Of a stretch of DNA of 64,000 nt, positions 33,360-62,548 are shown in pieces. A program made the position numbers and the translations under genes. The stretch is from Kineosporia succinea (GTDB lineage Bacteria > Actinomycetota > Actinomycetes > Actinomycetales > Kineosporiaceae). The DNA lies in contig NZ_JAUSQZ010000001.1 in assembly GCF_030811555.1 (NCBI RefSeq), positions 4,337,241 to 4,401,240 of the forward strand, given 5' to 3'. The notes under the pieces are model-generated. The model worked only from the letters and a program-made list of their open reading frames with translations, was not told the DNA's origin and did no database searches. Each line of letters opens with the position of its first letter. Position 1 is the stretch's first letter.

Positions 33360-33404
33360 GTGTCATGGTACGAAATCGCCGGGCGGAAGAGCAGTGGCCC
33401 GGCA

Positions 33405-36400
33405 TCAGCCGTCGGCCTCGACGGACGCCAGGTCGAGCGTCCCGTCCGGCCCGATCCGCACGTTGCCGAGCCGGTCCGACCACACCGACTGCTGGGCGTC
33501 GTACCAGAGCGGGATCACGGGCATCGGCTCCGCGAGCAGCGCCTCGGCCTGCCGGTAGGTCTCCAGGGCGTCGTGCGGGTCCTGCTCGTCGGCGCGGGTG
33601 ATGAGCCGGTCGAACTCCCGGCTCGACCACCGCGTACGGTTCGAGCTGGAGCTGGTGACGTAGGGCGCCTCGACGAAGTTCTGGATGTGCGGGTGGTCCA
33701 TGCCCCAGGAGCCGTGGAAGAGCCCGCTGATCGCGGCGTCGCCCTGGGCGTCCATGTACTCGGCGTTGGTCGGGTAGGCCTTCTTCTCGCAGGCCAGGCC
33801 CAGGGTCTCGGTGATGTCGCGGCAGATCGCGCCGGCCGTGCGGGCGGCGTCCGGCCGGGTGGCGTCGTAGCTGAACGAGACCGGGCCGTCGAAATCCGTG
33901 GCGGCCAGGTACTTCCGGGCGGCGTCCGGGTCGTAGGTGCACAGTTCGCCGCAGGCGCCCGGCCGGTAGCCGTACGCGACCGGTGACACCCACCCGGTCG
34001 CGGGAATCCGGCTGCCGGAGAGAACGCCGGCGGCGATGGTGTCGCGGTCGATCGCCGTCGAGAACGCCTTGCTCAGGTCCGGGTCGTCACGGTAGGCGGG
34101 GTCGTACTGCGGCACCATCACGAATTCGACCGTACCGAGCGCCTTGTCGGCGAAGTGCCCCGGGTGGTCGGTGCGGTAGCGGTTGCCGGCCCGGTCGTCG
34201 GCCGGTACCTGAGCCATGAAGTCCAGGTCGCCGCTGAGGGTCTCGTCGTAGGCGGCGTCGTCGGAGGGGTAGGTGCGCAGCCTCACCTCGGCGACCCGGG
34301 CCTGGTCGTCGCCTCCGTAGCGGGGCCAGCGGGTCAGCGTCGCCGAGGTTCCGGAGTCCGGGGCGGGGGTGAACACGAACGGGCCGTTGCCGACGGGGTG
34401 TTCGCCGAACGCCTCCGGGTCCTCGAAGAACACCGGCGGCAGGGGGGAGAACGCCGTGGAACCGAGCACCGACGGGAAGTATGACTGCGGGTTCTCGAGT
34501 TCGATCGTGAACTCCTGGCTGTTCACCTTTTTCAGCCCGGACAGGGTGCGGGCGGACGGTTCCGGCGCCTCCTGCGGCCCGCCTCCGTCGGGGTCGGGCG
34601 GGTTCAGGGCGGCGTAACCCACGATCGAGGCGAAGTAGTAGTTGTTCAGAGCCGCGTTCGGCCCGTAGGCGGCCCAGTTCCAGGCGTCGACGAAGCTGTC
34701 GGCGTCCACGAGCGAACGGTCGTGGAAGAGCTGGTCCGGCTTCAGCCGCACGTGCCAGATCCGGCTGTCGTCGGAGGTGACGGACTCGGCCATCGCCATC
34801 CGCGGCTCGGCGGAGCCCGGATCGGCGCGCACCAGGCCCCGGAACACGCTGCCGACGATCTGCAGGCCGCCGGGTTCCTGGGTGTGGGCCGGGGTCAGCG
34901 GGTTTCGCGGCTCGTCGAGGTAGAGGGTGATGCCGGCGTCCGGGTCGCCCCCGGCCGAGGGAGATCCACCGGGGTCCTGGGGCCAGAAGATCACCGCGAT
35001 CACCGAGATCAGGGCGACGGCGCCGGCGACGATCAGGATCCAGCCCCTGCGGTTGCGGGCGCTTCTCGGGGCACCTGGTTTCGGGGTGGCGGGTTTCGGG
35101 GTGCCTGGTTTCGGGGTGGCGGGTTTCGGGGTGGCGGGTTTCGGGGTGGCGGGTTTCGGGGTGGCCGACGGGGGACGCGTCGGTCGGGACGGGGTGTCGG
35201 GTGCCGGCTCGGGTGGGTCGAGACTCTCACGGGTTCCTCGCACCGGCAGCGGTTTCGAGCCGGCCGGGCCGATCACCTCGATGCTGGTGCCCAGCTCCTG
35301 CCCGGGCTCGGGAGCCCATTCCAGGGTGAGCTGCTCGTCGCGGCGCACCACCCGGACGTGCTCGTCGGGGGCGAGGGACAGGGTGGCCAGGGCCAGGGGC
35401 GGGCCACTGATGGCGACCAGGCGCCGTACCGGGGCGTCGAACGTGGAGGGCACAGTGCCGAAATCGACGTGGTCGGGCGCCAGGACGACCTCGAGCGTGT
35501 CCAGGGCCCGCCGGGCGGCGTCGCTGACGGCGCGGCTGTCGTCGGTGGTGAGTTCGCCCAGGAGCCGCCGGGCGCTCTCGGCCGCCGACAACTCGGAACC
35601 CCTGGCCAGGCGGCCCAGTTCGGTCACGGCGGCCTCACGCACCGCGGTGTAGGCGTCGCGCGCGAGCTCCGGGAGCCGTTCGGGCAGCGGCCCGGGGCGC
35701 ACGACCCGGTTCGGGTTCCGGGCGATCGAGATCGTGCCCCGGACGTCGAACTCCCACTTGCTCGGCGTCTGGTTCGGGGTACGCCGCCGTACCTCCTCGT
35801 GCACGTAGTCGTAGAGCTCGGGGAGGGAGACGAACCCGTCGTCGTCGGCGTCCGCCTCACCGGTGCGGATGCCCCGCACCAGGGAGTCGGTGAACAGCGA
35901 GGGACCAGGGCCGGAGGAGTCCCGCAGCGACTCGCCCTCGAGGGCGTACTCCATCGCGGTGGACGCCGTGATCACGACGTAGCCGTGCCCCTGGCCCACT
36001 CCCGCCGTCGCGGCCTCGGGCAGCTCCTCGGCCAGGTGTTCGCGCAGGTCGACGTCGCCGGGGGTGCGGGCGGTGACCCCGCGCTCGAAGGCCCCGCCGT
36101 AGCAGCAGTCGAGCAGGAGCACGACGCGCCGGGCCCGGCTGCGGCGGATCAGGCGGTTGATCAGCGCGGTGTCGACCGCGGTGGTCTCCAGGAAGTCGGC
36201 CCGGGTGTCGCGGGTGGCCAGGAAGAGGCGGCCGGCGGTGTCTTTCAGCCCGTGGCCGGAGAAGTGGATGAGCACGAGGTCGTCGGGCGAGCGGTCGTGC
36301 AGCACCTCCTGCACGCGGCGCTGCACCCGGTCGGCGGGCTCGTTGTGCAGCAGGTCGGTCTCGAAGTCGCCGAGCTCGGGATCGCCGAGCACCTCGTCGA

Positions 36401-36497
36401 GCGCGGCGATGTCGACGGCCGGGCTCTCGAGGGCGCGAAGGCCCGGGTGGTCGTGCTGGTCGGTGGCGATGAGCAGCGCCAGACGCCGCCCGGTCAC
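33405..36497 (-). CDS. Caspase-like protease fused through a membrane span to an oligopeptide-binding domain
   Basis: The 1030-aa product has five parts. Residues 1-255 are a peptidase C14 (caspase-like) domain with the catalytic His82 in LVLIHFSGHGLKD and Cys132 in VVLLLDCCYGGAF. Residues about 270-360 are short helices of HEAT type. Residues about 365-435 are a beta-rich domain (VDFGTVPSTFDAP). A (TPKPA)6 linker leads to one transmembrane helix (about 486-507, GWILIVAGAVALISVIAVIF). Residues about 515-1025 are an SBP_bac_5-like domain (NPLTPAHTQEPGGLQIVGSV, MAESVTSDDSRIWHVRLKPD). The likely topology is caspase inside, peptide-binding domain outside. The GTG start overlaps the EACC1-like gene by 4 nt. 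The caspase part matches the EACC1-associated caspase family; the fusion is unusual. Confidence 0.85.
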   Translation of the reverse strand: MTGRRLALLIATDQHDHPGLRALESPAVDIAALDEVLGDPELGDFETDLLHNEPADRVQRRVQEVLHDRSPDDLVLIHFSGHGLKDTAGRLFLATRDTRADFLETTAVDTALINRLIRRSRARRVVLLLDCCYGGAFERGVTARTPGDVDLREHLAEELPEAATAGVGQGHGYVVITASTAMEYALEGESLRDSSGPGPSLFTDSLVRGIRTGEADADDDGFVSLPELYDYVHEEVRRRTPNQTPSKWEFDVRGTISIARNPNRVVRPGPLPERLPELARDAYTAVREAAVTELGRLARGSELSAAESARRLLGELTTDDSRAVSDAARRALDTLEVVLAPDHVDFGTVPSTFDAPVRRLVAISGPPLALATLSLAPDEHVRVVRRDEQLTLEWAPEPGQELGTSIEVIGPAGSKPLPVRGTRESLDPPEPAPDTPSRPTRPPSATPKPATPKPATPKPATPKPGTPKPATPKPGAPRSARNRRGWILIVAGAVALISVIAVIFWPQDPGGSPSAGGDPDAGITLYLDEPRNPLTPAHTQEPGGLQIVGSVFRGLVRADPGSAEPRMAMAESVTSDDSRIWHVRLKPDQLFHDRSLVDADSFVDAWNWAAYGPNAALNNYYFASIVGYAALNPPDPDGGGPQEAPEPSARTLSGLKKVNSQEFTIELENPQSYFPSVLGSTAFSPLPPVFFEDPEAFGEHPVGNGPFVFTPAPDSGTSATLTRWPRYGGDDQARVAEVRLRTYPSDDAAYDETLSGDLDFMAQVPADDRAGNRYRTDHPGHFADKALGTVEFVMVPQYDPAYRDDPDLSKAFSTAIDRDTIAAGVLSGSRIPATGWVSPVAYGYRPGACGELCTYDPDAARKYLAATDFDGPVSFSYDATRPDAARTAGAICRDITETLGLACEKKAYPTNAEYMDAQGDAAISGLFHGSWGMDHPHIQNFVEAPYVTSSSSNRTRWSSREFDRLITRADEQDPHDALETYRQAEALLAEPMPVIPLWYDAQQSVWSDRLGNVRIGPDGTLDLASVEADG
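35077..35165 (-). repeat. 15-bp tandem repeat encoding the Pro-Lys-Pro linker
   Basis: Six near-identical 15-bp units (plus-strand form GGTTTCGGGGTGGCG) encode TPKPA or TPKPG repeats just before the transmembrane helix of the caspase fusion. The unit length keeps the frame, so the linker can lengthen or shorten without breaking the gene. Confidence 0.85.
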
Positions 36498-36970
36498 GGG
36501 GTGCGGTCGGGCGGGGCCTGGCCACCGGGGGCGGTGCCGGCCGGGGGCCCGGCCTGAGCTTGGGGCCCGGCCTGAGCTTGGGGCCCGGTCGCGGGCCCGG
36601 CCTGGTCTCCCGACCGGACGAACTCGTCGATCAGCCGGTCCTGCTGCTGGCGGTCGATGCCGGTCAGCACGATGCGGCGGTCACCGATGGACAGTTCCGC
36701 GGTGCGTGCGGCCTCGCGCGCCCCGAGCCAGCCGCGCACCGCGCCGAGCACCAGCTCGAACAGCGGGACCGAGTTCTGCAGGGTGAGGATCAGCCCGCCC
36801 ACGGTGACCGGGTCGACGGCCCGGGTGCGGTCGGGAGCCTCGCCCGGAATCGGCTCCAGCGCATCGAGATCCAGCGCGTGCAGGTCTTCGCGCAGCGCGA
36901 TCACGGAGAGTTCGAAGGCCTCGGGCGACGAGCCCGCGTCGGTCAGGACCACCGTGATCACCGTCGGCAT
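36494..36970 (-). CDS. EACC1-like component of a caspase conflict system
   Basis: The 158-aa product has the pattern I associate with EACC1 (effector-associated constant component 1): strand TVITVVLTDAG, helix AFELSVIALREDLHAL, strand, a hydrophobic helix TVGGLILTLQNSVPLFELVLGAVRGWLGA, strands AELSIGDRRIVLTGI, a helix QQQDRLIDEFV, and a Pro/Gln-rich tail (GPQAQAGPQAQAGPPAG). EACC1 proteins are encoded next to caspase, trypsin or TIR effectors in actinobacterial conflict systems. It overlaps the caspase gene by 4 nt (GTGA). The ATG follows GAGGGGG. The molecular role is unknown. Confidence 0.75.
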   Translation of the reverse strand: MPTVITVVLTDAGSSPEAFELSVIALREDLHALDLDALEPIPGEAPDRTRAVDPVTVGGLILTLQNSVPLFELVLGAVRGWLGAREAARTAELSIGDRRIVLTGIDRQQQDRLIDEFVRSGDQAGPATGPQAQAGPQAQAGPPAGTAPGGQAPPDRTP

Positions 36971-37221
36971 CGTTCCCCCTCACCCGATGGACAAGTCGGG
37001 CAAAGGCTATGACATCGATGGTCTTCGTGTCCCCCGAACGACCGGTGAGGGTTCCGCGAGGGGTGACCACCACGTCCATCATCGGGCGGCATCGAGCACT
37101 GACTCTGTGTGCCGAGCGGCTGGCCCGATCGGGTGGCCGGGCCCCTCGGGCTCAGGCCCGCCGGGCGTGCCCCCGATCCAGAACCGGACGCTGGATGGGG
37201 GATCCGGGGCGAGGAGACGTG

Positions 37222-39777
37222 GTGCCGACGCTGGCTGCTCGTGCCCTCGTGGTCGTTCTCACCGCGGCGGTGGCCTCGCTGCTGGGCTGGGCCGGGCTCG
37301 GGCCGCTGGAGGACGCGTCGGCCTGGGAGCCGGTCTGGTGGCCGCTGTCCGGGTTCGGGGCCGTGCTTCTGGTGTTCGCGTCCCGGCGGTTCTGGCCCTG
37401 GATCGTGGCCGGTCTGGCGCTCGGGTCGTCGACGATCGTGCTCTTCCTCGAGCCGGACCTGGTGAATCTCGGCGGTCTGGTGGCCGGTCTGGTCGAGAAC
37501 GTGCTGATCGCCCTGCTGCTGCGCCGGCTGCGGCCGCGCAGCGCGCTCGACGAGTCGCTGCTCGACACCGTGCGGGTACTGGTCAGCGTGCTGGCCGGGA
37601 GCGCCGTGGCATCGGTGGCGTTCGCCGTCGTCGGGGCCTCGAGCGACCGCACGCTCCTCAGCCTGTGGTCGGAGTTCACCCGTAACCACCTGCTGGCCCT
37701 GATGCTGGTCTCGCCGTGCCTGGCCGTGAGCATCGACCGCGACGAACTCCTCCTCGAGCTGCGCGAGCACCGCCGGAACCTGGAATGGCTGGCCCAGCTG
37801 GGAATCTCGGCCGGGATCACCGCCCTGGTCTTCCTCACCTACCAGGGCGTGGTGGGGTCGTCGATCCTGGTACTGCCGCTGATCTGGGGTGCCCTGCGAC
37901 TCGGGCCGCTGCGCACGATGATCACGCTGCTGGTGATCGCGACCCTGAGCACGCTCGGCACCAATCACGGTCTGGGCTCGATCGCGGCCCGGGGGAGCGG
38001 CGCCGAGGAGGTGCTGACGCTGCAGGTGGCACTGGGCGTGCTGGCCCTGACCACGATGGTGACGTCGGTGGTCGGGCGGCTGCGGGAGCGGGCGATGGCG
38101 CTGGTCGAGGAGCGCACCGGTGACCTGAACATGGCCGAGCGGGTGGCCGGGATGGGCTCGGCGCGGTGGGATCCCGCGACCGGGCGCACGATCTGGAGCG
38201 AAGGGCTGCACCTGCTGCTCGGCACCGACCCGGGACACGTGCGCCCGAGCCCGGAGGAGTACCTCACCCGGATCCACCCGGACGACCTGGAACGGGTCAG
38301 TGAGGACGTCGGACGGCTGGCGCGGGAGGGGAGGGCGTACACGCTGGAGTACCGGATCGTGCGGGACGACGGCGAGACCCGGGACGTGGTGCTGCGCACC
38401 GCGACCGAGCGCCGCCCCCGTCTTCACTCCGTCTTCACGGTGGTGCAGGACGTCACCCAGGCCCGCGCCGCGGCCGCCGAGGTGCGCCGCGCGCACGACG
38501 AGCTGGCCGCGGTGCTGGACGCCGTGACCGGCACCGCGATCCTCGGCGTGGGCGGACCCGACGGCCTGGTCACGTTCTTCAACATCGGGGCCGAGAACCT
38601 GTTCGGCTACCGCGCCGACGAGGTGATCGGGAAGCTCACGGCGCTGCAGATGCACGCACCCGACGAGCACCAGCCGGCCGGCGGGGAGCACCCGTTCGCC
38701 ACGATCACCACCGCCCTCGACGAGCAGGGCGCCTACTCCGAGCAGCGCACCTTCCTGCGCAAGGACGGCTCGATGTTCCCCGGGCAGCTGACGGTGACCG
38801 CCCAGCAGGGGCCCGACGGGCGCCCTCTCGGCTTCATCGGTGTGATCACTGACCTCAGCCGGGTGCTGACGACCCAGGAAGAGCTGGCGGAGAGCGAGAA
38901 ACGGTTCCGGCTGGCGTTCGACACCTCGCCGATGGGGATGGCGATCGTGTCGCTGGAGCCGGAGAGCGCGGGCCGGCTGCTGCGCGTCAACGGGGCCCTG
39001 AGCGAGTTCGCCGGGATCAGTGAGGAACGCATGGTCGGGGCGCCGGTGGGTGACTTCCTGCGTGACGGCGGGCAACTGCACGAGGCGATGGCCAACATCG
39101 CCGAGATGGTCGCCGGGCAGAGGGAGTCGTTCACCTCGGAACGCCACCTGGTGCGCCCGGACGGAGGGCAGCGCTGGGGCCGGATCTCGGCCTCGGCGGT
39201 GCGGCCCGACGGGGACCGGGAGCCCTACCTGATCATGCTGGTCGAGGACATCACGGCCCGCAAGGAACTCACCGAGCGGCTGCAGCACGAGGCCGCGCAC
39301 GACTCGCTGACCGGCCTGCCCAACCGCCTGCACCTGCACCGCCAGCTGGAACGCGAGCTGCGGGAACGGCATTCGGGGCACGTCGCGGTGCTGTACCTGG
39401 ACCTGGACGGGTTCAAGGCGGTGAACGACCTGCAGGGGCACGGCGCCGGGGACGAGCTGCTGGTGCAGGTGGCCGACCGGATCGCGGCGTCGGTGCGTTC
39501 GTCCGACGTGGTGGCCCGGCTCGGTGGGGACGAGTTCGCGGTGCTGTGCCCGGGAGTGCCCGACGTCGGCACCGCGATGCGGATCGGCTGGAGCGTGCTG
39601 GCGGCGCTGTCGCGGGAGTTCGACCTGAGCGAGACCCGGGCCCGGGTGGGCGCGAGCATCGGGGTGGCCGTGGCGATCGAGGGGGACACCGGTCCCGACC
39701 TGCTGCACGCGGCCGATCAGGCGATGTACGCGGCCAAGCGGGCGGGGAAGGGGCGGGTGCAGCTGAACGCGCGGTGA
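37222..39777 (+). CDS. Diguanylate cyclase with MASE1 and PAS sensor domains
   Basis: The 851-aa product makes cyclic di-GMP. Residues about 5-300 are a MASE1-like membrane sensor with about eight helices. Three PAS-type domains follow (AGMGSARWDPATGRTIWSEG; ILGVGGPDGLVTFFNIGAEN; FRLAFDTSPMGMAIVSLEPE). The C-terminal GGDEF domain has the intact active site ARLGGDEFAVL, and the inhibitory I-site RSSD lies five residues before it. No EAL domain is present. GTG 37222 is chosen for the GAGGAG 6 nt upstream; the open frame extends to 37009 without similarity. It is divergent from the EACC1/caspase pair. Confidence 0.88.
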   Translation: MPTLAARALVVVLTAAVASLLGWAGLGPLEDASAWEPVWWPLSGFGAVLLVFASRRFWPWIVAGLALGSSTIVLFLEPDLVNLGGLVAGLVENVLIALLLRRLRPRSALDESLLDTVRVLVSVLAGSAVASVAFAVVGASSDRTLLSLWSEFTRNHLLALMLVSPCLAVSIDRDELLLELREHRRNLEWLAQLGISAGITALVFLTYQGVVGSSILVLPLIWGALRLGPLRTMITLLVIATLSTLGTNHGLGSIAARGSGAEEVLTLQVALGVLALTTMVTSVVGRLRERAMALVEERTGDLNMAERVAGMGSARWDPATGRTIWSEGLHLLLGTDPGHVRPSPEEYLTRIHPDDLERVSEDVGRLAREGRAYTLEYRIVRDDGETRDVVLRTATERRPRLHSVFTVVQDVTQARAAAAEVRRAHDELAAVLDAVTGTAILGVGGPDGLVTFFNIGAENLFGYRADEVIGKLTALQMHAPDEHQPAGGEHPFATITTALDEQGAYSEQRTFLRKDGSMFPGQLTVTAQQGPDGRPLGFIGVITDLSRVLTTQEELAESEKRFRLAFDTSPMGMAIVSLEPESAGRLLRVNGALSEFAGISEERMVGAPVGDFLRDGGQLHEAMANIAEMVAGQRESFTSERHLVRPDGGQRWGRISASAVRPDGDREPYLIMLVEDITARKELTERLQHEAAHDSLTGLPNRLHLHRQLERELRERHSGHVAVLYLDLDGFKAVNDLQGHGAGDELLVQVADRIAASVRSSDVVARLGGDEFAVLCPGVPDVGTAMRIGWSVLAALSREFDLSETRARVGASIGVAVAIEGDTGPDLLHAADQAMYAAKRAGKGRVQLNAR

Positions 39778-40071: not shown

Positions 40072-40974
40072 GTGAGAGTCAGGGGCATGACGAAATCGAC
40101 ATGGATTCGTGTCACTGACGCCTACCGTGAGGAACTTCTCGCCGCCGGGGGATCTCCCGGCTCTGTCCGGGTCAGAAGCGTCCATCTGCGCAAACTCGAG
40201 CGCGAGCTCGAGGCCGCGGGGTACAGCAGCCCCCTGAACGCCACCCGGCAGGACCTGCTGAGCTTCATGGCCAACTCCCGGTGGTCGCCGGAGTACCGGC
40301 GCTCGATCCGCTCCACGGTGGTCGGTGTGTACGCCCTGGCGGCCGCCGACGACATGCGGGCCATCCCGGTCAACCCGGCCGACCGCTTGCCTCGTGTCCG
40401 GGTGCCGATGGGCGTGCCGCGGCCGGCCTCGGACGAGCAGATCGAGTGGGCCCTCGACCGGGCTGACGAGCGCATCTGGCTCGCGATCATGCTCGGCGCG
40501 GTGCCGGGCCTGCGTCGTGCTGAGATCGCCGGGGTGCACGTCGACCACCTGCGCGCCGGCAAGCTGTGGATCAAGGGCAAGGGGGGCAAGGAGCGGGAGG
40601 TGCAGGTGCCGCGCGTGATCGGCGACCGCATCCGGTCACAGGCCCACCCGCAGTTCGGGTGGGCCTTCCCGAACTGCTCACCGATGCACCCGCAGTTCCA
40701 CGGCCGGCACCTCAGCCCCGACCGCATCGGCCACCTGGTCGGCGGCGCACTGCCGAAAGGGGTCACGACGCACCAGCTGCGGCATGCGGCCGCCAGCTAC
40801 CTGCACAACACGTGCGGACTGTCGATGGAGGAGCTGCGGATCGTGCTCGGGCACGCGAGCATCAGCACCACGCAGCGGTACGTGCGGGCGAACACCGCCC
40901 GGGCCGACCAGGCGCTCGAGGGCGCAGCGACCAGATTCGTGCGGCGGCCGGTCCTGCGCTCAATTCCGGCCTGA
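40072..40974 (+). CDS. int: Phage tyrosine recombinase (integrase)
   Basis: The 300-aa product has an N-terminal SAM-like core-binding domain (YREELLAAGGSPGSVRVRSV) and the catalytic residues of tyrosine recombinases: Arg in VPGLRRAEIAGV, the Lys strand KLWIKGKGGKEREV, HxxR in THQLRHAAASYLH, His in VLGHASISTTQ and the Tyr in RYVRANT. It lies 200 nt from the tRNA remnant, as expected for the enzyme that integrated this element. At 300 aa it is XerD-sized and lacks a separate arm-binding domain. GTG 40072 follows GGCGAGGG; ATG 40087 is an alternative. Confidence 0.9.
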   Translation: MRVRGMTKSTWIRVTDAYREELLAAGGSPGSVRVRSVHLRKLERELEAAGYSSPLNATRQDLLSFMANSRWSPEYRRSIRSTVVGVYALAAADDMRAIPVNPADRLPRVRVPMGVPRPASDEQIEWALDRADERIWLAIMLGAVPGLRRAEIAGVHVDHLRAGKLWIKGKGGKEREVQVPRVIGDRIRSQAHPQFGWAFPNCSPMHPQFHGRHLSPDRIGHLVGGALPKGVTTHQLRHAAASYLHNTCGLSMEELRIVLGHASISTTQRYVRANTARADQALEGAATRFVRRPVLRSIPA

Positions 40975-44178: not shown

Positions 44179-44991
44179 ATGCGCACGCAGTGGCACCAGC
44201 TTCCGGCCGACGTTCGATCCGCCATCGAGCAACACGTCGGCGATCTGCGAGAGGTGACGCATGTGGCTGCCGGGTCGTCCTCTGACCTCGTCGCGATCTT
44301 GCACACGCGTACGGGCTCGGTCTTCTGCAAGGGGACCGCGATCGACAACCCGCAGGCGTGGATGCATCGCCGCGAGGCCGTGCTGAACCCGCACGTGCCG
44401 CGCGATCTCGCCCCGCGTCTGCGCTGGCAGGTAGCCGCCAGCGGCTGGCTCGTGACTGGATTCGACCGCGCGCCCGGCCGCCACGTCGACATCGCACCGG
44501 ACTCGGCCGACCTGCCCCTGCTCACGGCCACCCTGACAGCGATGTCCACTACGCCAGCCCCGGGCCCGCCGGTCAAGATCCTGACCGCCGGTGAACGGTG
44601 GGGCGGCCGCATCAGCCCTGAGCTGCTTGCCGGCGACGTGCTGGTGCACTCGGACGTCACCCCGAAGAACTTCCTCGTCGACGACGCCCACGGGCGGATC
44701 GCGGTGGTCGACTGGTGCACGCCGGTGCGCGGCGCTGCCTGGATCGACACGGCGCTCATGATCGTGCGGCTCATTCGAGCCGGGCACACACCGGCGCAGG
44801 CCGAGGCGTGGGCCGCCCAGGTCCCGGCGTGGGCCGACGCCACCCCGACCACAGTGACCCTGTTCGCTCGAGGGACCGCCGACCGGATCGCCGCGACCAA
44901 CGCCCAGACACCGGCCGTGCACCTGCGGGAGCTGGCGGCGGCCGCCGACGCGTGGGCTCGCCACCGCGCGGCGGAACCGGCGCACGTCTGA
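44179..44991 (+). CDS. APH-fold phosphotransferase family protein
   Basis: The 270-aa product has the aminoglycoside-phosphotransferase/choline-kinase catalytic loop HSDVTPKNFLVDD (His, Asp and Asn in the expected order) and the following metal Asp in IAVVDWCTPVRGAAWID. The N-terminal lobe has GSSSDLVAILHTRTGSVFCKG with the ATP-contacting Lys. The substrate cannot be inferred; resistance is only one option. It is the last rightward gene of the module and stops just before a bidirectional terminator. Confidence 0.8.
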   Translation: MRTQWHQLPADVRSAIEQHVGDLREVTHVAAGSSSDLVAILHTRTGSVFCKGTAIDNPQAWMHRREAVLNPHVPRDLAPRLRWQVAASGWLVTGFDRAPGRHVDIAPDSADLPLLTATLTAMSTTPAPGPPVKILTAGERWGGRISPELLAGDVLVHSDVTPKNFLVDDAHGRIAVVDWCTPVRGAAWIDTALMIVRLIRAGHTPAQAEAWAAQVPAWADATPTTVTLFARGTADRIAATNAQTPAVHLRELAAAADAWARHRAAEPAHV

Positions 44992-49269: not shown

Positions 49270-51456
49270 TCAGGCTCCGTATCCGGCTTGGGGGTACAAC
49301 TGCACGGCGGTGCCGGCCGCGTGCGCCCGGGCCACGGAGCCCAGGACGCCGCGCACGACCGTCACGGTCTGCGGGCTGGTCGCGGACGCTGGCGCACTCG
49401 GCACCTGCATGTACTCGCCGTTGACGTGCAGCCAGAGCGGGTACTGACCGGCTGCGGCCGTCAGCACCGGCCCGGACGCGGTGGTGATCGTCAGGGCCGT
49501 CGCGGTGGCGCTGATCGCGCCGATGGTCGCCTGCACACCGTCGAAGTCGTACCGGCCGTAGACCGCGTCGTCGTAGACGAGCTCGGCCGGGGTGTCGGCC
49601 GGCACCGTGTTGAAGACGATCCGGCAGGACTGCTGCAGGCCGCCGGTGCCGGTCTCGAGCTCGCCCCACTCTTCCTTCCATCCGATGATGTGCACGTCCC
49701 TGTAGGCGTACCCGAACTGGCTTGCCTCGAGCCCCTGCAGGCGCACCCGCACGCCCGGGCGCAGCTGCGTCAGCACCCAGGACCACAGATCCTGCACCGC
49801 CGATCCGACGTCGACACCGAACTGCGAGATCCGGAGCCGACGGCCCCGGCGCACGTACCAGGCAGCCAACGACCGGGAGTCAGCCGGAGAGACGGTGAAG
49901 GCATCGACGCTGGATCCGTCGCGGCGCTCCCTTGTCTCCATGACGGAATCCACGAAAGTCCCGTCACCGAGCGGTGATTGGACGGTCTGTCGGGTCGGAT
50001 TTTCCTGCGCGCCCCGCCGCCACACCTGCCCGGCATCGACGTCGTCGTCCGGGCCGACCGTGAGCGTCAGGCTGACCGTGGTCGGCCGCATCTGCGTGCC
50101 GTCGATCAGCTCGACCACGTCGTCCGCGTACCGGGTCCACAGCATGCCTGAGACCGTGCGAGCGAGGACCTGAGCGACGTCCGTGACCGACTGGCCGATG
50201 CTCGAGCCCTGCGCGACGTTCCGGAGGGTCCCGTCGCCGGTGTACGCCGCCGAGAACCCGCCCCAGACAGCGTAATCGCCCAACCACCTGTCGGTGGCCG
50301 TGCTGATGTTGTTGTTCTGGCTGTACCTTTCGAAACCGCTGCCCGCCCCCGTCGACATGATCACGCAGGCCACCGACATCGGGACGCTGCGCGCCTTGAT
50401 GTTCCCCACCGCGGCCCCGTTGGCCTTGGTCGCGAAGTTGGGCTTCATGTCGCCGGCGAACACGATGTAGCTGCAGGCCGCCGTGTCGACCGGGACCAGG
50501 CCGCCGAACGAACCGCCTGTGAAGCTGTCGTAGGCCAGATAGCCGGGATTCGTTGTGTCGCCCGGGTTTGCCGACAGGTAGAAGGAGTGCCAGGCACCGT
50601 CCACCGGGCCGGTGTCCATCACGTAGAAGGAGGTAGCGACCCCGGCCGGGGTGAACGCGTACTCGAAACGCAGCTGCGGGTTGGCGTTAGCGAGGGTGAC
50701 CCGCCACAGCAGGTTGTAGCTCGCGTCGAAACCGGCCGCGATCACGCCCACGTCGTCCAAGGGAGGGGCCGTACCGAGAGGGAGCCGAAACCAGAAGCCC
50801 AGCGAAAACAGTGGGCTCACGCTGGTGGCCTGCGACTGGCAGACCAGCACGGGCCCGCGAGCCTTGTTCGGCCTGAAGTCGACTGCGCCCTCGACGGCCA
50901 GCCCGGCCGGCTCGATGTAGCTGCAGGCGCCGCGGCCGTCCTTTGGGTCGACCATCGTGGCCGAGCTCCGCCCGTCGACCGGCTTGCCGACGTTGTGCGG
51001 GCGCCGCGGCCGGCCGTTCGTGATGAACGGCCAGGCGTCGAACCAGCCGGGCGCGCTTGACCGGAACCGCTCGATCGTGTCCGAGTCCATGGCACGCCGA
51101 GCTAGGCCGCCGGTCCGGTCCAGCGCGGTAATGGTCACGGTCGAAAGACGTTGATCAGTATCGGTGTTCACGACCCATGTCTTGATCCGGAACACGCCGC
51201 GCCGGTAGGTCGTCGCGTTGTGCACGATCGACCACCGGCAGCGGATGCCCTCCTGAATGCGGTCCCAGTACGGGGACAGCGGGTTGTCCGGCGTGAACCT
51301 GCCATCGTAGTTCTCGAGGCTGGCCCGGATGCTGCCAGGGCCGCCGTCGTCGCCCCAGTTGCTCGACCCGAACTCAACTTCGACCCCGGGCTGAGTCCAG
51401 GCCGTGACATCGGTCCAGACTCCGCTCGTGAACTCAATTTCCAGGACGCCCGGCAC
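49270..51456 (-). CDS. Minor tail protein with a laminin-G-like insert
   Basis: The 728-aa product begins with WTDVTAWTQPGVEVEFGSS and GSIRASLENYDGRFTPDNPL, the pattern of actinophage minor tail proteins after the tape measure. Residues about 165-350 resemble a concanavalin A/LamG jelly roll (LFSLGFWFRLPLG, TNPGYLAYDSFTGGSF), suggesting sugar binding. The C-terminal part (QYPLWLHVNGEYMQVPS) is another domain typical of these proteins. GTG 51456 overlaps the tape-measure stop by 1 nt. Confidence 0.75.
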   Translation of the reverse strand: MPGVLEIEFTSGVWTDVTAWTQPGVEVEFGSSNWGDDGGPGSIRASLENYDGRFTPDNPLSPYWDRIQEGIRCRWSIVHNATTYRRGVFRIKTWVVNTDTDQRLSTVTITALDRTGGLARRAMDSDTIERFRSSAPGWFDAWPFITNGRPRRPHNVGKPVDGRSSATMVDPKDGRGACSYIEPAGLAVEGAVDFRPNKARGPVLVCQSQATSVSPLFSLGFWFRLPLGTAPPLDDVGVIAAGFDASYNLLWRVTLANANPQLRFEYAFTPAGVATSFYVMDTGPVDGAWHSFYLSANPGDTTNPGYLAYDSFTGGSFGGLVPVDTAACSYIVFAGDMKPNFATKANGAAVGNIKARSVPMSVACVIMSTGAGSGFERYSQNNNISTATDRWLGDYAVWGGFSAAYTGDGTLRNVAQGSSIGQSVTDVAQVLARTVSGMLWTRYADDVVELIDGTQMRPTTVSLTLTVGPDDDVDAGQVWRRGAQENPTRQTVQSPLGDGTFVDSVMETRERRDGSSVDAFTVSPADSRSLAAWYVRRGRRLRISQFGVDVGSAVQDLWSWVLTQLRPGVRVRLQGLEASQFGYAYRDVHIIGWKEEWGELETGTGGLQQSCRIVFNTVPADTPAELVYDDAVYGRYDFDGVQATIGAISATATALTITTASGPVLTAAAGQYPLWLHVNGEYMQVPSAPASATSPQTVTVVRGVLGSVARAHAAGTAVQLYPQAGYGA

Positions 51457-53654
51457 TAGATCGACCCACCTTGGAAAGTCCCCACCGGGATCGACCCGCC
51501 GTTCGACTTGTACTCGGACATCGCCTTGATGAGCGCCTTCGCGATCTGCTCCGGCGTCCCGAACGGGGCGTTGATGTTGATCGTCAGCCCGCCGCCACCG
51601 CCCGAGCTGCCGCCTACGCTCGAACGGGTCTTCTTCGGTGCGTGCCTGCTGGTGATGTCAGCGATCTCGCCGCGGGCTCCGGCGAGCCGGTTGGCGATGC
51701 TCTCCTTGGTCGCGCTCGTCCTTCCGAGAGCACCTGCCCTGCTCACCGTGGCCAGGACAGACGACCCCTTCCGGGCGACCGTCAGCGCGGCGCTCATCTC
51801 CTTGCTGACTCCCGGGGCGCCCTTCCGGATGCCGGAAGCCACCAGATCCATCAACCTCTTGCCGGCGCCGCCGTTGTTCCAGTTCTTCAGAGGGCCGGTG
51901 CGGATCGGGGATCCGGGGAGCATGCCCTTGATCCGGCCGAGCCCGGACTTCACGGCGTCGACGGCACCGCCCATCGCGTTCGTGATGCCTCGGGTGAGCC
52001 CCTTGATCAGCTGCGCGCCAGCGTTGTAAAGCGCGCTAGGGCTGAAGATTGAGCGGATCTTGCCCAGGATGTCGCGGGCCTTCGTGACGATCGTCTGCAG
52101 CAGCTCCCGATGCCGCTGCACCGCAGTCCGCACGAATCCGGTAACTGCCGACCAAACCCGCTGCGCGGCAGTCGAGATCGCCCGCCAGGCGCCTACGGCG
52201 AAGCTTCGCAGACCCGAGAGGATCGCGCGCACCGTACCGATGTAGAAGCGCACGTAGCCTGCAATGAGCTTGAACGCGAGCTGAGCCGCGACCTGAACGG
52301 CTTTCCAGACGACCTCTCCGACCCGCTGGATCGCGGGCCACGCTTTCGCCCACAGCTGCTGAAACCACGTGGTGCGCTTAGCGATCACCACGACGATCGC
52401 CACGAGCGCCGCGATCGCGATCACCACCAGACCGATGGGGTTCGCGCTCATCGCAGCGTTCAGGAGCCACTGTCCCGCCGTCCAGACCTTGGTGGCCACA
52501 GCGGCGAGGGTCGCGTAGCCGTTGTAGGCGGCCATCGCCACCTGGTACGCCACGAATCCCGCGACGATCGCGGTCAGCACCGGCGGCGGCACCGCAGCGA
52601 TGAGCTGAGCCAGGGCCCCCGCGATCGCGAGGGACACAGGGGCCAGCGGCGTGACCGCCTGAACCAGAGTCACCAGCGACGTCCCGATCGACGTCAGCAG
52701 CGACATGAGGGCAGGGCCCTGGGAGCTGGTGTAGCTGACGAACGTGGTCCAACCGCCACCCTGACCGAACGCGGCGAGCTTCCCGGACATCTGGGTCAGC
52801 CAGATCAGAAAGCCCTGTCCCTGCCCCGCAGAGAGCTTGAACAGAGGGCCGAAGCCGCGGGCCAGATTCCGCAGAATTACCTCGAAGCTCGCGAACGCTC
52901 CGGTGGCCTGCGCCGACAGGAAAAGCACCAGATCCCTCAGGCCGCCCGAGTCGGCCCACTCCTTCAGCCTGTCCAGGAATCCGCCGGCCGATCGGGCAGC
53001 AACGTCGAAAAGCGGCTGAGCCTCGGCGAGCCCAGCCTTGATCAGCCCATACCCCTGGCTCAGGATCCCGTACGTGGCCGGCTTGTTCTTGTCGACGAAC
53101 CCCTGCCACGCGGCAGCCATCGATCGGTACTCCTGCACCGCCTGACGCTGCTTCGGCGGCATCAGCGCCAGGGCGTCGGCATATTCCTGCTGCGCCTTCG
53201 TCTGAGCCTTGAGTGCGGCCGTCCGGGCCTCGCCGTCGCCTCGCTGCGTAGCAGATGCCGCAGCCTGGTTCGCAGCGTCGATCTTCTCCTGCAGCGAATC
53301 CAGATCGTCTGCTGACTCCTTCACCTCTTCGAGGGTCGAGGTGAAGACGGCACCGAAGAGCTTCCCGGCCGCGCCGGCCCCGGCCAGCGCCCCCGTCAGC
53401 CCGACGACCAGCGGCACGGCCGCGGCCACGCCCGGCACGATCGCGGGGCCGATCAGGGCGCCAGCCACGGCCAGCGCCTTAAACTCGAACGCGGCCTTCT
53501 CAGCGCTGTCCCCGGCCTTGTCGAGGCCCTCGCTCGAGTCGGCGCCGGCCTTCTTCGCCTTGCGGCCGGCCCGGTCGAGGTTGTCGGCGAACTTGTTGAG
53601 GCCGCGGTCGGAGTGGTCCCGAACGATGAGGTCGAAGGATAGGCTCTCGCTCAT
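51456..53654 (-). CDS. Tail tape measure protein
   Basis: The 732-aa product sets tail length. It has an N-terminal helical region (LNKFADNLDRAGRKAKKAGA), a coiled part (DDLDSLQEKIDAANQAAASA), hydrophobic segments in the middle (PVSLAIAGALAQLIAAVPPP; IGLVVIAIAALVAIVVVIAK), a Trp-rich segment and the TMP-like C-terminus (MLPGSPIRTGPLKNWNNGGA). At roughly 0.15 nm per residue a tail of about 110 nm is expected. It directly follows the frameshifted chaperone genes. Confidence 0.88.
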   Translation of the reverse strand: MSESLSFDLIVRDHSDRGLNKFADNLDRAGRKAKKAGADSSEGLDKAGDSAEKAAFEFKALAVAGALIGPAIVPGVAAAVPLVVGLTGALAGAGAAGKLFGAVFTSTLEEVKESADDLDSLQEKIDAANQAAASATQRGDGEARTAALKAQTKAQQEYADALALMPPKQRQAVQEYRSMAAAWQGFVDKNKPATYGILSQGYGLIKAGLAEAQPLFDVAARSAGGFLDRLKEWADSGGLRDLVLFLSAQATGAFASFEVILRNLARGFGPLFKLSAGQGQGFLIWLTQMSGKLAAFGQGGGWTTFVSYTSSQGPALMSLLTSIGTSLVTLVQAVTPLAPVSLAIAGALAQLIAAVPPPVLTAIVAGFVAYQVAMAAYNGYATLAAVATKVWTAGQWLLNAAMSANPIGLVVIAIAALVAIVVVIAKRTTWFQQLWAKAWPAIQRVGEVVWKAVQVAAQLAFKLIAGYVRFYIGTVRAILSGLRSFAVGAWRAISTAAQRVWSAVTGFVRTAVQRHRELLQTIVTKARDILGKIRSIFSPSALYNAGAQLIKGLTRGITNAMGGAVDAVKSGLGRIKGMLPGSPIRTGPLKNWNNGGAGKRLMDLVASGIRKGAPGVSKEMSAALTVARKGSSVLATVSRAGALGRTSATKESIANRLAGARGEIADITSRHAPKKTRSSVGGSSGGGGGLTININAPFGTPEQIAKALIKAMSEYKSNGGSIPVGTFQGGSI

Positions 53655-54154: not shown

Positions 54155-54691
54155 CTATTTCTCCAGTTCCTGCAGCGCTTTTCGCGCCGCTTCTCGAATC
54201 CTCTTGATGGCGGCCGGGCCATGTTCGCTGACTGCCCGGTCGAACCACCCTGCCGGGGTTATCTTTTGAGTGACCCAGGCGGAGGTGTTGCCGAATACCG
54301 GGTGGCGCCACTGTCCCTTGTTCGTCGCCCTGATCAGGGCCCGCTGAGACTCGGGCAGGTACTTCCCGTCGACCCGTACGCGGACCCCGGTCCGGAATCC
54401 CGAGTAGGTGATCTTGCGGGTGACGCCCTTGGCGATTGACTCTCGTAGGCCGGTTTTCCCGGTCGCGCCCCGCTTGGATCGGGCGGCGTTGGCGGCACCG
54501 CGCTGAGCAGCGCCACCGCCGCGGACCCCTCGCACCTGTGTGCCCTTGATGTTCGCCTTCGCGGCCCGCTCGATCGGGGCTGTCGCGTCCTTGATCTCCT
54601 TGGACAGCGTGCGCTTGATCTGCGGTGGTGCGCCTTTCATTCGAGCGATGACCCGCTCGAACTCTTTCGAGGGGGTGAGCTCGACGTCCAT
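54155..54691 (-). CDS. HK97 gp10-like tail completion protein
   Basis: The 178-aa product has the gp10-like start MDVELTPSKEFERVIARMKG and APPQIKRTLSKEIKDATAPI, a basic Gly/Ala-rich middle, and C-terminal helices (AAIKRIREAARKALQELEK). These proteins act at the head-tail join or tail terminus. ATG 54691 overlaps the tail tube stop by 1 nt (TGATG). Its position after the tail tube gene is less usual than before it. Confidence 0.65.
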   Translation of the reverse strand: MDVELTPSKEFERVIARMKGAPPQIKRTLSKEIKDATAPIERAAKANIKGTQVRGVRGGGAAQRGAANAARSKRGATGKTGLRESIAKGVTRKITYSGFRTGVRVRVDGKYLPESQRALIRATNKGQWRHPVFGNTSAWVTQKITPAGWFDRAVSEHGPAAIKRIREAARKALQELEK

Positions 54692-55701
54692 CAGAGTGCC
54701 GTGTCCGCGGTCCGGTAGCCGATGTAGAACAGATCGTGGGTGTTGTTGTAGGTCACCTTGCCGGTGATGCCGACGACTGCCGTCTCGTCCGCCATCCCTG
54801 GCGTGACCGGGCTCTCGAGGAACAGCTGCGGGATCGCCACTTGCAGCTGGCTGTTGCCGGATCCCACGACCTCGGTAGTGGTGTGCGTGACGGTGACCGG
54901 CAGGCCGGTGCCGGCCAGATATGCCGTGCGCAGGGTCGTGTCGTTGTACTCGACGTCGGCTGTGAACTCGGGCTCGAGGATGCCCACAGTCGGCTGGTTG
55001 CGACCGCCCAGCACCCACCGTTCGATGTCCGCGTTCTGCTCCCACTCGAGCTTCCACGAGCGGATCGCACCGAACGGAGTCAGGCCGCTGGCCAGCGTGG
55101 TGGTGGTCGGCGCGACCAGGGTGCCGCCGACCCCCGCAGCGCCCTGGGAGTGGTCGAAGAGGTACGACGCAGCGGTGTACGACGCCACTGCCAGCGGCAC
55201 TCCGGTCTGATACGAGCGCGCGTCGAAAGTCACCTGCACCGTGAGGATGTCGTCCTCGGGGCACTCGATCTCCGCCGAAACCGCAGTGCAGCCGCCGAAG
55301 GTTTCGGTGTCGACCGTGCCGTCGTTGCGCACCTTGGCCAATTGGATCGTGTACGACTTGGGCATCACGGTGCCGGGGATGCTCGGCGTGAAAAGCTGCA
55401 GGCTGCCGCCGGTGATCGCGGTGACCGTGCCCGCTCCTGCGGCGGCCTCGAGCAGCAGACCGAACTGCCGGCTCCCGGCCTCGGCCTTGATGACGACTTC
55501 GCCCTGACCGATGGGCAGCACGCGCCGATCGCCGCGGAACCCACGGCGGGTGCTGACCATGACGCCCTGGCCCTGGCGCTGCCGGGTGTCCCAGTTGCCC
55601 TCGGTGCCGTCGAGGTACGGCACGAACCGATCAACGGTAACCGGCGTGTTGTAAGAACTTTCGGCCTTGATGCCGACCTGGTGTTCCATCCTGTTGGCCA
55701 T
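54691..55701 (-). CDS. Major tail (tube) protein
   Basis: The 336-aa product has the actinophage tail tube pattern: EHQVGIKAESSYNTPVTVDR, FVPYLDGTEGN, long beta stretches (TVMPKSYTIQLAKVRNDGTV, TAVSAEIECPEDDILTVQV) and LEWEQNADIERWVLGGRNQP. It would stack as hexameric rings around the tape measure. The gene follows the connector genes and precedes the gp10-like gene. Confidence 0.8.
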   Translation of the reverse strand: MANRMEHQVGIKAESSYNTPVTVDRFVPYLDGTEGNWDTRQRQGQGVMVSTRRGFRGDRRVLPIGQGEVVIKAEAGSRQFGLLLEAAAGAGTVTAITGGSLQLFTPSIPGTVMPKSYTIQLAKVRNDGTVDTETFGGCTAVSAEIECPEDDILTVQVTFDARSYQTGVPLAVASYTAASYLFDHSQGAAGVGGTLVAPTTTTLASGLTPFGAIRSWKLEWEQNADIERWVLGGRNQPTVGILEPEFTADVEYNDTTLRTAYLAGTGLPVTVTHTTTEVVGSGNSQLQVAIPQLFLESPVTPGMADETAVVGITGKVTYNNTHDLFYIGYRTADTAL

Positions 55702-60226: not shown

Positions 60227-61471
60227 TCAGCTCGCCGGGCCCTGCAGAACCTTGAAAGCGGACGCGTTCTGCAGCGTGCCGTCCGCGCGGGTGAAGGCGA
60301 AGAAGCCGACCTGCAGGTAGTCGGCGTAGCGCTCGTCGAGACGGATGAGCTTCTGGTCCTGCACGACCCGCGCCACGTACGCCTCGCGGATCGAGCCGAA
60401 CCCCAGCGACTTCGAGGCGATCGCCTCGGTGGCCATGTCGTTGTTCAGGATGAACGGGTAACCCATCAGGTTCGACGGGACACCGGCCTGCAGAGAGGGC
60501 TCCCACAGGGGCCGGTTCTGCCCGTCGAGCATCTTCCGGGCCGCCTTCCGGGCGCTCTGGTGACCCATGAACTTCAGGTCGGACAGGCCGCCGTAGGCCG
60601 GGTCGAGCGACTCGACCAGGTCGACCAGCGCGGCGTAGTTGACGCCGCCGGTCGCGGCGAACGTGCCGCTGGTGGTGGCGCCCACGGTGGCGTTCGTGAC
60701 GATGCCGTCGGGCTGAGCGGTTCCGGTGCCGACGGTGTAGTGCGCGTTCAGGATCCGGCCGAGCCGCTCGCCGAGGCGCTTGGCGAGCCAGGCCTCGAAC
60801 CGCGGGTTGTCCTGCATCAGCTGGTAGCTGACGCGCACCAGCTTCGACGTGTACATGTACGCGTCCAGCGAGTTGGTGCCGAGAGTGACGTCCTGCTCGG
60901 TGATCTGGCTGTTCTCCGCGAGGATCGCACCGACGTTGCCGGTGTCGTCGTTGGTCGGCCACGGGATGTTCGCGCCCGTGGTCGTCTCCAGAACCTCGGC
61001 CTCCTGCAGCATCGGTCCGAAGAACCGCATCTGCTGGATGATCTGGTCACGGAACGCCGGGGGGATGGTGTACCCACCGGCGGCGGGGGTGGTGCCGGCC
61101 GCGTTCTTCGGCTGCTCGAACCGAGCGCGCATCAGCTTCTTGTCGTCCGCCTCGAGCTCGGCCAGACCACCGTGGACGTAGCGGTTGAAAGCCCGCTCGT
61201 AAGCGGCGTCTTCCTCGGAGGTGATGTCGCCCGTGCTGGCCACGACCCCGGCGCGGTTGACCACCGAACCGGCGTTCTGCGCGGCTGCGATCTTGAGGAA
61301 CTTCTCGGCCGTCGCGATGACCTCGTCCGCCTGGTCGTAGGCGATCTCGGCCTTCACGTAGGTGGCCTTGTCCTCGCCGGACGGGTCGTTGCCCGTCCGC
61401 TGCATGATCTCCTTCATCGTCTCCCACGCGCGTGCACGGGCGTCGATGCGGTCCTGAAGGTCAGGTGCCAC
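60227..61471 (-). CDS. Major capsid protein, HK97 fold
   Basis: The 414-aa product has an N-terminal helical delta-like domain (residues about 1-100, LQDRIDARARAWETMKEIMQ) that the prohead protease would remove. The HK97 core follows: GYTIPPAFRDQIIQQMRFFG, WPTNDDTGNVGAILAENSQI, LVRVSYQLMQDNPRFEAWLA, HYTVGTGTAQPDG and a C-terminal strand LQVGFFAFTRADGTLQNASA. No separate scaffold gene is seen, in line with the delta domain acting as scaffold. It follows the protease gene. Confidence 0.92.
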   Translation of the reverse strand: MAPDLQDRIDARARAWETMKEIMQRTGNDPSGEDKATYVKAEIAYDQADEVIATAEKFLKIAAAQNAGSVVNRAGVVASTGDITSEEDAAYERAFNRYVHGGLAELEADDKKLMRARFEQPKNAAGTTPAAGGYTIPPAFRDQIIQQMRFFGPMLQEAEVLETTTGANIPWPTNDDTGNVGAILAENSQITEQDVTLGTNSLDAYMYTSKLVRVSYQLMQDNPRFEAWLAKRLGERLGRILNAHYTVGTGTAQPDGIVTNATVGATTSGTFAATGGVNYAALVDLVESLDPAYGGLSDLKFMGHQSARKAARKMLDGQNRPLWEPSLQAGVPSNLMGYPFILNNDMATEAIASKSLGFGSIREAYVARVVQDQKLIRLDERYADYLQVGFFAFTRADGTLQNASAFKVLQGPAS

Positions 61472-62376: not shown

Positions 62377-62548
62377 CGGGCGCCCCTTCCTCGGTGACGT
62401 TGTGGACCTCGTGACGGCATCCGGCGCACAGCAGCCGCGGCAGCGCGAGGACGCCGGGGGCTGCCTCGGCGATCGGCACGCTGGTGTCGGCCGGGGCCGG
62501 GCACGAACTGTTCAGGCAGCGGACGGGCAGGTTCGTTGCGACGATCAT
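62369..62548 (-). CDS. Small Cys-motif protein between portal and protease
   Basis: This 59-aa gene starts at ATG 62548, overlapping the portal stop by 4 nt (ATGA), and ends inside the start of the protease gene, so all three are coupled. The product begins MIVATNLPVRCLNSSCPAP and contains RLLCAGCRHEVHN. The four cysteines plus histidines look like a small zinc ribbon. The function is unknown; it could be a virion or regulatory protein. Confidence 0.65.
   Translation of the reverse strand: MIVATNLPVRCLNSSCPAPADTSVPIAEAAPGVLALPRLLCAGCRHEVHNVTEEGAPDA

What the first reader, a model, noticed from the sequence alone, without database searches (positions are those of the whole stretch)
33405..36497. 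Caspase-like protease fused across the membrane to an oligopeptide-binding domain
One 1030-aa frame joins an intact caspase dyad (His82, Cys132), helical and beta domains, a repeat linker, one membrane helix and a complete SBP_bac_5-like domain. SBP domains normally feed ABC importers; here no permease or ATPase is nearby. The architecture suggests a one-component receptor in which binding of an extracellular peptide activates a cytoplasmic protease, perhaps for regulated cell death, phage sensing or developmental signalling.
Basis: partly seen in the sequence, partly recalled or inferred. Interest (0 to 1): 0.88.

Follow-up and report, generated by a model that had tools for sequence, protein, structure and literature searches.

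The report
Caspase receptor with peptide-binding outer domain
A bacterium carries an inserted two-gene cassette whose main protein joins an internal caspase-type protease, through one membrane helix, to an outside domain related to its genus's own peptide-import protein; it belongs to a published class of predicted conflict systems and looks like a membrane sensor whose trigger could be tested.

Summary
One intact 1030-aa frame (minus strand, 36497 to 33405) has an EACC1-type caspase (NCBIfam NF047832, 156 bits, cut-off 140) with its His82/Cys132 dyad, a middle region, a Pro/Lys/Thr linker, one membrane helix and a complete DppA-type SBP_bac_5 domain. It matches EACC1-like genes beside dozens of such caspases, so this is an EACC1-caspase two-gene system (Kaur et al. 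2020), a class whose text already mentions TM plus extracellular periplasmic-binding-protein tails. The class is therefore not new.

New here: (1) the ectodomain is sister to the genus's own DppA, on a very long branch, keeping two documented peptide-pocket residues; (2) a second, distant SBP_bac_5 tail occurs in another family and SBP_bac_11-like tails in four more loci (at least 6 of 112 caspase frames have SBP tails); (3) the pair sits in about 3.7 kb absent at this site in 5 of 5 congeners.

Best reading: a conflict or cell-death switch in which the SBP ectodomain senses an outside peptide, or acts as bait, and gates the caspase. Domain identity is shown; topology, ligand, signalling and outcome are inferred.

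The parts
36494..36970 (-). EACC1-like partner gene (158 aa, P0002); its stop overlaps the caspase start by 4 bp (GTGA)
   Evidence: phmmer with P0002 matches 66 ORFs upstream of other caspase frames at E<=0.01, best 2.2e-21; alignment A3; 16 of 23 members of A3 match PF19953 EACC1, P0002 itself does not
33405..36497 (-). caspase - middle region - linker - TM - SBP_bac_5 fusion, 1030 aa, GTG start
35763..36488 (-). EACC1-associated caspase (C14) domain, residues 4-245
   Evidence: Pfam and NCBIfam matches
36252..36254 (-). catalytic His82 codon (SGHG)
   Evidence: alignment of 53 rows and A2
36102..36104 (-). catalytic Cys132 codon (DCCYGG)
   Evidence: alignment of 53 rows and A2
35208..35735 (-). 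middle region, residues 255-430 (HEAT-like helices then Ig-like strands by eye only), shared with some other EACC1-type caspases
   Evidence: matches of residues 1-429 run to residue 370-421 in several relatives; no Pfam family; single-sequence model too poor to use
35058..35225 (-). Pro/Lys/Thr repeat linker, residues 425-480
   Evidence: sequence
34992..35048 (-). single transmembrane helix, residues 484-502, Arg-rich on the N-terminal side, no Cys within residues 440-560
   Evidence: hydropathy; sequence
33408..34922 (-). SBP_bac_5 / DppA-type peptide-binding ectodomain, residues 526-1030
   Evidence: Pfam, phmmer to Mtb DppA chains, best E 2.7e-58, model pLDDT 93.7, fold matches
33705..33707 (-). 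Trp931 codon, equivalent of Mtb DppA W442 (peptide pocket)
   Evidence: alignment; W in 54 of 54 other SBP rows; role in Mtb DppA from passages of PMC6751184
33696..33698 (-). Asp934 codon, equivalent of Mtb DppA D445 (peptide pocket)
   Evidence: alignment; D in 54 of 54 other SBP rows; passages of PMC6751184
33376..37096 (.). approximate extra DNA carrying the EACC1-caspase pair between the DAO gene and the GGDEF gene; right edge uncertain (37096 to about 37213)
   Evidence: DAO and GGDEF are direct neighbours in 5 of 5 congeners; flank similarity ends at 33375-33381 and resumes at 37096-37213 or beyond, depending on the congener, weakly before 37213

Best explanation
This is an EACC1-caspase two-gene system whose variable C-terminal module is a membrane helix plus a peptide-binding ectodomain captured from a DppA of its own lineage. 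Proposed working: the caspase waits in the cytoplasm, held off by EACC1 and the middle region at the membrane. The DppA-type clam-shell outside closes on a short peptide, from prey, phage-lysed neighbours, a competitor or cell-wall turnover. Closure is passed through the helix and the linker, and the caspase is released to cut itself and/or host targets, giving death or dormancy of the cell. Shown: gene pair, domain order, intact catalytic and pocket residues, complete SBP fold, extra DNA at this site. Inferred: topology, ligand, signalling across the membrane, substrate and outcome.
For: EACC1-type caspase above the curated cut-off with both catalytic residues kept. An EACC1-like partner overlaps the start by 4 bp. 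Complete DppA fold; among Mtb DppA chains the apo transporter form 8wd9 superposes better (rmsd 2.6) than the tripeptide-bound 7jls (5.8). Trp931/Asp934 kept, and 57 of 68 columns conserved at 90% or more kept despite a very long branch. TM-SBP tails recur: 2 SBP_bac_5 and 4 SBP_bac_11-like found among 112 caspase frames. The pair lies in about 3.7 kb missing at this site in 5 of 5 congeners, and such caspases are patchy (12 of 78 relatives at E<=1e-20; 19 of 396 phylum genomes at E<=1e-25; own genome counted in both), as conflict systems often are. Kaur et al. 2020 put EACC1-caspase pairs among predicted conflict systems.
Against: No experiment. A single TM helix offers no known route (to my knowledge) for SBP closure to reach a caspase. 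11 of 68 conserved SBP columns are changed, including Tyr to His next to Asp934, so ligand choice may have drifted or been lost. Kaur et al. read the variable tails as effectors and EACC1 as the possible sensor. P0002's best 19-residue hydropathy is only 1.61 (range 1.21-2.23 in the 23 aligned members), so its membrane insertion is uncertain. No other locus examined has an orthologous caspase-DppA fusion, so conservation cannot vouch for this pairing.
Confidence: 0.45

Rival explanations
1. Integrated bait: the ectodomain is a decoy copy of the host's own DppA. A phage, predator protein or peptide antibiotic that engages or enters through the Dpp importer touches the decoy and fires the caspase. 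Ligand binding is not needed, only surface likeness.
For: The fused SBP is sister to the genus's DppA (100/100 support; 50-53% identity), and the own-genome DppA sits in an operon with two permease and two ATPase genes. The second fusion, L222, has its nearest kin among 100 genomes of its family at 49-55%, in frames of 621-710 aa that are too short for such a fusion, and four more distant ones (30-43%) in its own genome. Other EACC1-type caspase tails found here look like housekeeping proteins: HSP70 (L211, L215), penicillin-binding transpeptidase (L205), FtsK (L159).
Against: Only 51% identity and a long branch: a bait should resemble its original. Many tails are not obvious housekeeping proteins (helicase-like AAA, RDD, WD40, STAND, kinase).
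Confidence: 0.22
2. Effector release, as Kaur et al. proposed for the class: EACC1 senses a membrane event, the caspase cuts its own chain in the linker, and the tail (here TM-SBP) is the deployed part, for instance capturing peptides or jamming the Dpp importer.
For: Published model for the class; a flexible linker lies between caspase and helix.
Against: A cut in the linker frees the caspase, not the membrane-held SBP; an SBP outside has no obvious toxic action; no Cys lies near the helix, so a lipoprotein form is not likely.
Confidence: 0.12
3. Ordinary peptide or nutrient signalling: a developmental or quorum-type receptor, not defence.
For: The SBP_bac_5 pheromone receptor PrgZ is a sequence and fold relative.
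Against: At this site the pair is present in one of six genus genomes and sits in extra DNA, unlike a conserved developmental regulator; the partner family is a predicted conflict family.
Confidence: 0.1
4. A decaying or chance fusion with no settled function; the SBP is drifting.
For: End branch 0.94 against 0.01-0.12 in the six genus DppAs; letter make-up differs; single instance of this pairing among the loci examined.
Against: Frame open over 1030 codons with coding-like GC pattern; both catalytic residues, both pocket residues and 57 of 68 conserved SBP columns kept; SBP tails recur.
Confidence: 0.08

Closest known systems
EACC1-caspase two-gene system ('System 4', Kaur et al. 2020, eLife 9:e52696, PMC7159879; passages read)
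   Same: 5' EACC1 gene, 3' gene with N-terminal caspase and variable tail; some tails are TM plus extracellular periplasmic-binding protein
   Different: Here the tail is identified as SBP_bac_5/DppA-type and placed next to the genus's own DppA. Fig. 7C and the source data of that paper were not available, so it is unknown whether an SBP_bac_5 tail was among its examples
NCBIfam NF047832 'caspase, EACC1-associated type'
   Same: Caspase domain scores over the curated cut-off
   Different: The model covers only the caspase domain, not the ectodomain
Mycobacterium tuberculosis DppA (Rv3666c; 6e3d, 6e4d, 7jls, 8wd9)
   Same: Full-length sequence and fold match; W442/D445 equivalents kept
   Different: A substrate-binding protein of an ABC importer; here the domain is tethered to a caspase. 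Heme-site R179 aligns with Val here
EACC2-caspase systems with extracellular CHASE2 tails (Kaur et al. 2021, PMC8195603; passages)
   Same: Constant caspase part with sensory extracellular tails
   Different: Other constant component and other sensor domain
Canu caspase-nuclease defence (PMC12799240; passages)
   Same: Bacterial caspase with Ig-like region in tested phage defence
   Different: Three-gene system with a nuclease; the words EACC, transmembrane and substrate-binding do not occur in its main text

Membership tests
EACC1-caspase two-gene system | EACC1-associated-type caspase at the N terminus of the 3' gene | tested here: met
   NF047832 156.4 bits over 140
EACC1-caspase two-gene system | 5' partner gene of the EACC1 family | tested here: met
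   Met by homology, not by direct profile score: P0002 itself has no Pfam or NCBIfam hit and is not among the genome's 5 PF19953 matches at E<=1, but it matches 66 ORFs upstream of other caspase frames, and 16 of 23 aligned members match PF19953
EACC1-caspase two-gene system | single conserved TM helix in EACC1 | tested here: inconclusive
   best 19-residue hydropathy of P0002 is 1.61, below the 1.8 I used for TM calls; aligned members range 1.21-2.23
EACC1-caspase two-gene system | variable C-terminal module | tested here: met
   helicase-like AAA, RDD, WD40, FtsK, kinase, STAND, HSP70, transpeptidase, SBP_bac_11, SBP_bac_5 among relatives
EACC1-caspase two-gene system | role in a biological conflict | not testable with these tools
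   prediction only, in Kaur et al. 2020
Caspase (C14) peptidase | His-Cys dyad in HG and DxC motifs | tested here: met
   (motif names recalled)
Caspase (C14) peptidase | proteolytic activity | not testable with these tools
   needs assay
SBP_bac_5 / DppA peptide-binding protein | complete two-lobe fold | tested here: met
SBP_bac_5 / DppA peptide-binding protein | peptide-pocket Trp and Asp (W442/D445 of Mtb DppA) | tested here: met
SBP_bac_5 / DppA peptide-binding protein | encoded with an ABC permease and ATPase | tested here: not met
   none among the 18 neighbouring frames scanned; the genome's own DppA does sit in such an operon. So it is not an importer component by context
Mtb DppA heme-binding type | Arg179 of the heme cleft | tested here: not met
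   aligned position is Val; role of R179 from PMC6751184 passages

The most novel reading that the evidence does not exclude
The variable tails of EACC1 caspases are not effectors but sensors or integrated baits, repeatedly copied from the host's own exposed or essential proteins. This locus would be a clear membrane case: a species-specific cassette that displays a diverged copy of its genus's peptide importer subunit outside the cell and couples its engagement to a caspase, an outside-in bacterial death receptor.
Probability: 0.25. Interest if true: 0.78.

Novelty: new member of a known kind. Interest (0 to 1): 0.47.

Why it matters
Most bacterial caspases with a tested immune role act inside the cell on inside signals (my general knowledge). 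A caspase wired to an outside peptide-binding domain would be a bacterial counterpart of a death receptor. The captured domain comes from a well-studied fold with a defined pocket and has an identified paralogue in the same genome, so the sensor, bait and effector readings of a whole predicted class can be separated by simple tests.

Tried and rejected
Frameshift or assembly artefact: rejected; one open frame with coding-like third-position GC in all six slices, single contig.

Orthologous caspase-DppA fusions elsewhere: none found in what was examined. The window SBP searched against all ORFs of 109 loci with caspase frames, by phmmer and by an HMM of 99 DppA-type SBPs plus the window, gave only the window. 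That HMM missed the divergent SBP_bac_5 of L222, which Pfam found; a joint HMM then found window and L222 only. The four longest SBP frames outside the own genome (G188, G162, G153, G094; 810-1313 aa) were fetched and hold no caspase match. Plasmids: 1084 records matched, none with one place covering 80% of the query; all 30 listed cover the SBP half only. Of 138 relatives in genome contigs, 80 loci were kept and none of the 80 has a caspase match.

Limits of the tail survey. The 112 frames are those that match a caspase HMM made here (E<=1e-5), not all over the NCBIfam cut-off; three loci (L161, L180, L243) give two frames each, so there are 109 loci. Long frames and other chosen places were fetched preferentially, so proportions are not unbiased. 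One search scanned 50 tails but lists only the 25 commonest of 104 families; 30 fetched tails were shown singly. 45 of 112 frames had no P0002-like partner by phmmer: some loci are cut, some partners look more divergent by eye, some may lack one.

Full-length structure from a single sequence: mean pLDDT 37, useless. The HEAT-like and Ig-like naming of the middle region is by eye and untested.

Heme sensing as in Mtb DppA: disfavoured, Arg179 is Val.

Whether the fused SBP's excess change is relaxed or positive selection: not tested; one sequence only. Target-site repeats at the insertion edges were not looked for.

Full report
Observation. The 1030-aa frame lies on the minus strand from 36497 (GTG) to 33405. 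Pfam finds Peptidase_C14 at residues 4-245 and SBP_bac_5 at 565-948. NCBIfam names the caspase 'EACC1-associated type' with 156.4 bits over a cut-off of 140. PADLOC gives a general caspase match (E 2.7e-8). His82 and Cys132 are the conserved dyad: H in 49 of 53 and C in 51 of 53 rows, window and fragments included. A hydrophobic helix at 484-502 follows a Pro/Lys/Thr repeat and an Arg-rich stretch. Codon-position GC shows one coding frame over all six slices.

The missing partner. A 158-aa gene at 36494-36970 overlaps the caspase start by 4 bp. It has no direct family hit, and the genome's five PF19953 matches at E<=1 do not include it. Yet phmmer with it, at E<=0.01, matches 66 ORFs lying just upstream of other caspase frames, best E 2.2e-21. 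67 of 112 caspase frames, the window included, have such a partner; in 28 of these 67 a 4-bp overlap is possible. In an alignment of 23 of these proteins, 16 match the Pfam EACC1 family. I take the locus to be an EACC1-caspase pair. Kaur et al. describe a conserved TM helix in EACC1; P0002's most hydrophobic 19 residues average 1.61, which is borderline.

What is in print. Kaur et al. [quoted passage not shown] They read tails as effectors and EACC1 as a possible sensor. The paper's figure and source data were not available, so the type of PBP is unknown to me. A search for 'EACC1' found 13 papers, ten listed, of which these authors' two are the ones on this subject. Searches joining caspase with EACC1, solute-binding, periplasmic-binding or phage-defence terms showed no other description in their listings (two searches listed 8 of 38 and 8 of 27 papers). 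So the architecture class is published and I saw no experimental test of it.

Survey. EACC1-type caspases occur in 12 of 78 relatives (E<=1e-20), 35 of 394 class genomes (query residues 1-429, E<=1e-15) and 19 of 396 phylum genomes (E<=1e-25), the own genome counted in each; and, with query residues 1-429 at E<=1e-30, in 64 of 295 genomes of one genus and 57 of 250 of one family. I fetched loci with 112 caspase frames in 109 loci, the window included; not every match was fetched, and long frames were preferred. Tails vary: of 50 tails scanned, 13 carry AAA_12/AAA_11 helicase-type domains, 6 RDD and 5 WD40. Tails shown singly include FtsK, nSTAND1, protein kinase, DEAD helicase, HSP70 and penicillin-binding transpeptidase. 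SBP tails: SBP_bac_11 by Pfam in L183, L185 and L186, with L184 matching their HMM though not Pfam; SBP_bac_5 in L222 (E 4.3e-28) and in the window. That is at least 6 of 112.

Two separate SBP_bac_5 tails. L222 is over the NF047832 cut-off (169.3 bits) and has an EACC1-like gene upstream. Its SBP is far from the window's: best BLAST E 2.1, 16% identity over 405 columns in a profile-profile alignment at 99% probability. Its nearest relatives among 100 genomes of its family are 49-55% identical and lie in frames of 621-710 aa; its own genome has four more, at 30-43%.

The extra DNA. In 5 of 5 congeners the DAO gene (69-87% identity) and the GGDEF gene are direct divergent neighbours, with no EACC1 or caspase match at E<=1e-10 in the 11-kb stretches. 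In the window, flank similarity stops at 33375-33381 and resumes between 37096 and 37213 or a little beyond, depending on the congener. The pair therefore sits in about 3.7 kb of extra DNA. Two congeners carry other EACC1-type caspases elsewhere (G003, G004). Loss in all five congeners is possible but less simple than gain. The ectodomain's closeness to genus DppA suggests that the fusion arose in or near this genus.

Mechanism. By inference, the caspase is cytoplasmic and the SBP outside: Arg-rich side before the helix, and SBPs of this family act outside. I favour a ligand-gated switch (0.45). The bait reading (0.22) is the boldest that the data allow: both SBP_bac_5 tails have their nearest kin in the host's own lineage, and some other tails resemble host proteins. 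Against it stand the low identity and the many tails that are not obvious housekeeping proteins. Effector release fits poorly, because a linker cut would free the caspase and leave the SBP in the membrane.

Verdict. Real, intact and well annotated; a new member of a known kind with an informative ectodomain.

Noticed in passing
window 40072-63834: Tyrosine integrase at 40072-40974 (+) and, on the minus strand, phage structural genes: tape measure 51456-53654, minor tail 54691-55701, major head 60227-61471, portal 62545-63834. A siphovirus-type prophage seems to start about 3 kb from the EACC1-caspase pair; no tRNA in the window.
   Followed up: partly
window 37009-37230: The listed start of the GGDEF gene (37009) lies in or at the edge of the extra DNA; the reading conserved in two congeners begins at an in-frame GTG at 37222, so the true start is probably there.
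   Followed up: partly
L137 (own genome C1:885118-885741): A second, more divergent EACC1-like caspase (86 bits, under the cut-off) fused to a protein kinase domain, with no EACC1-like gene recognised upstream.
   Followed up: partly
L211, L215, L205, L159: EACC1-type caspases whose tails are HSP70 (two), a penicillin-binding transpeptidase and FtsK: relatives of housekeeping proteins, of interest for a bait reading of the class.
   Followed up: no
own genome C1:2234370-2235890: A third DppA-like SBP (38% to the window SBP); the longer query's match reads through one in-frame TGA, the shorter query's match holds none.
   Followed up: no
window 44179-44991: Weak APH phosphotransferase family match (1.3e-5) between the integrase and the phage structural genes.
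   Followed up: no
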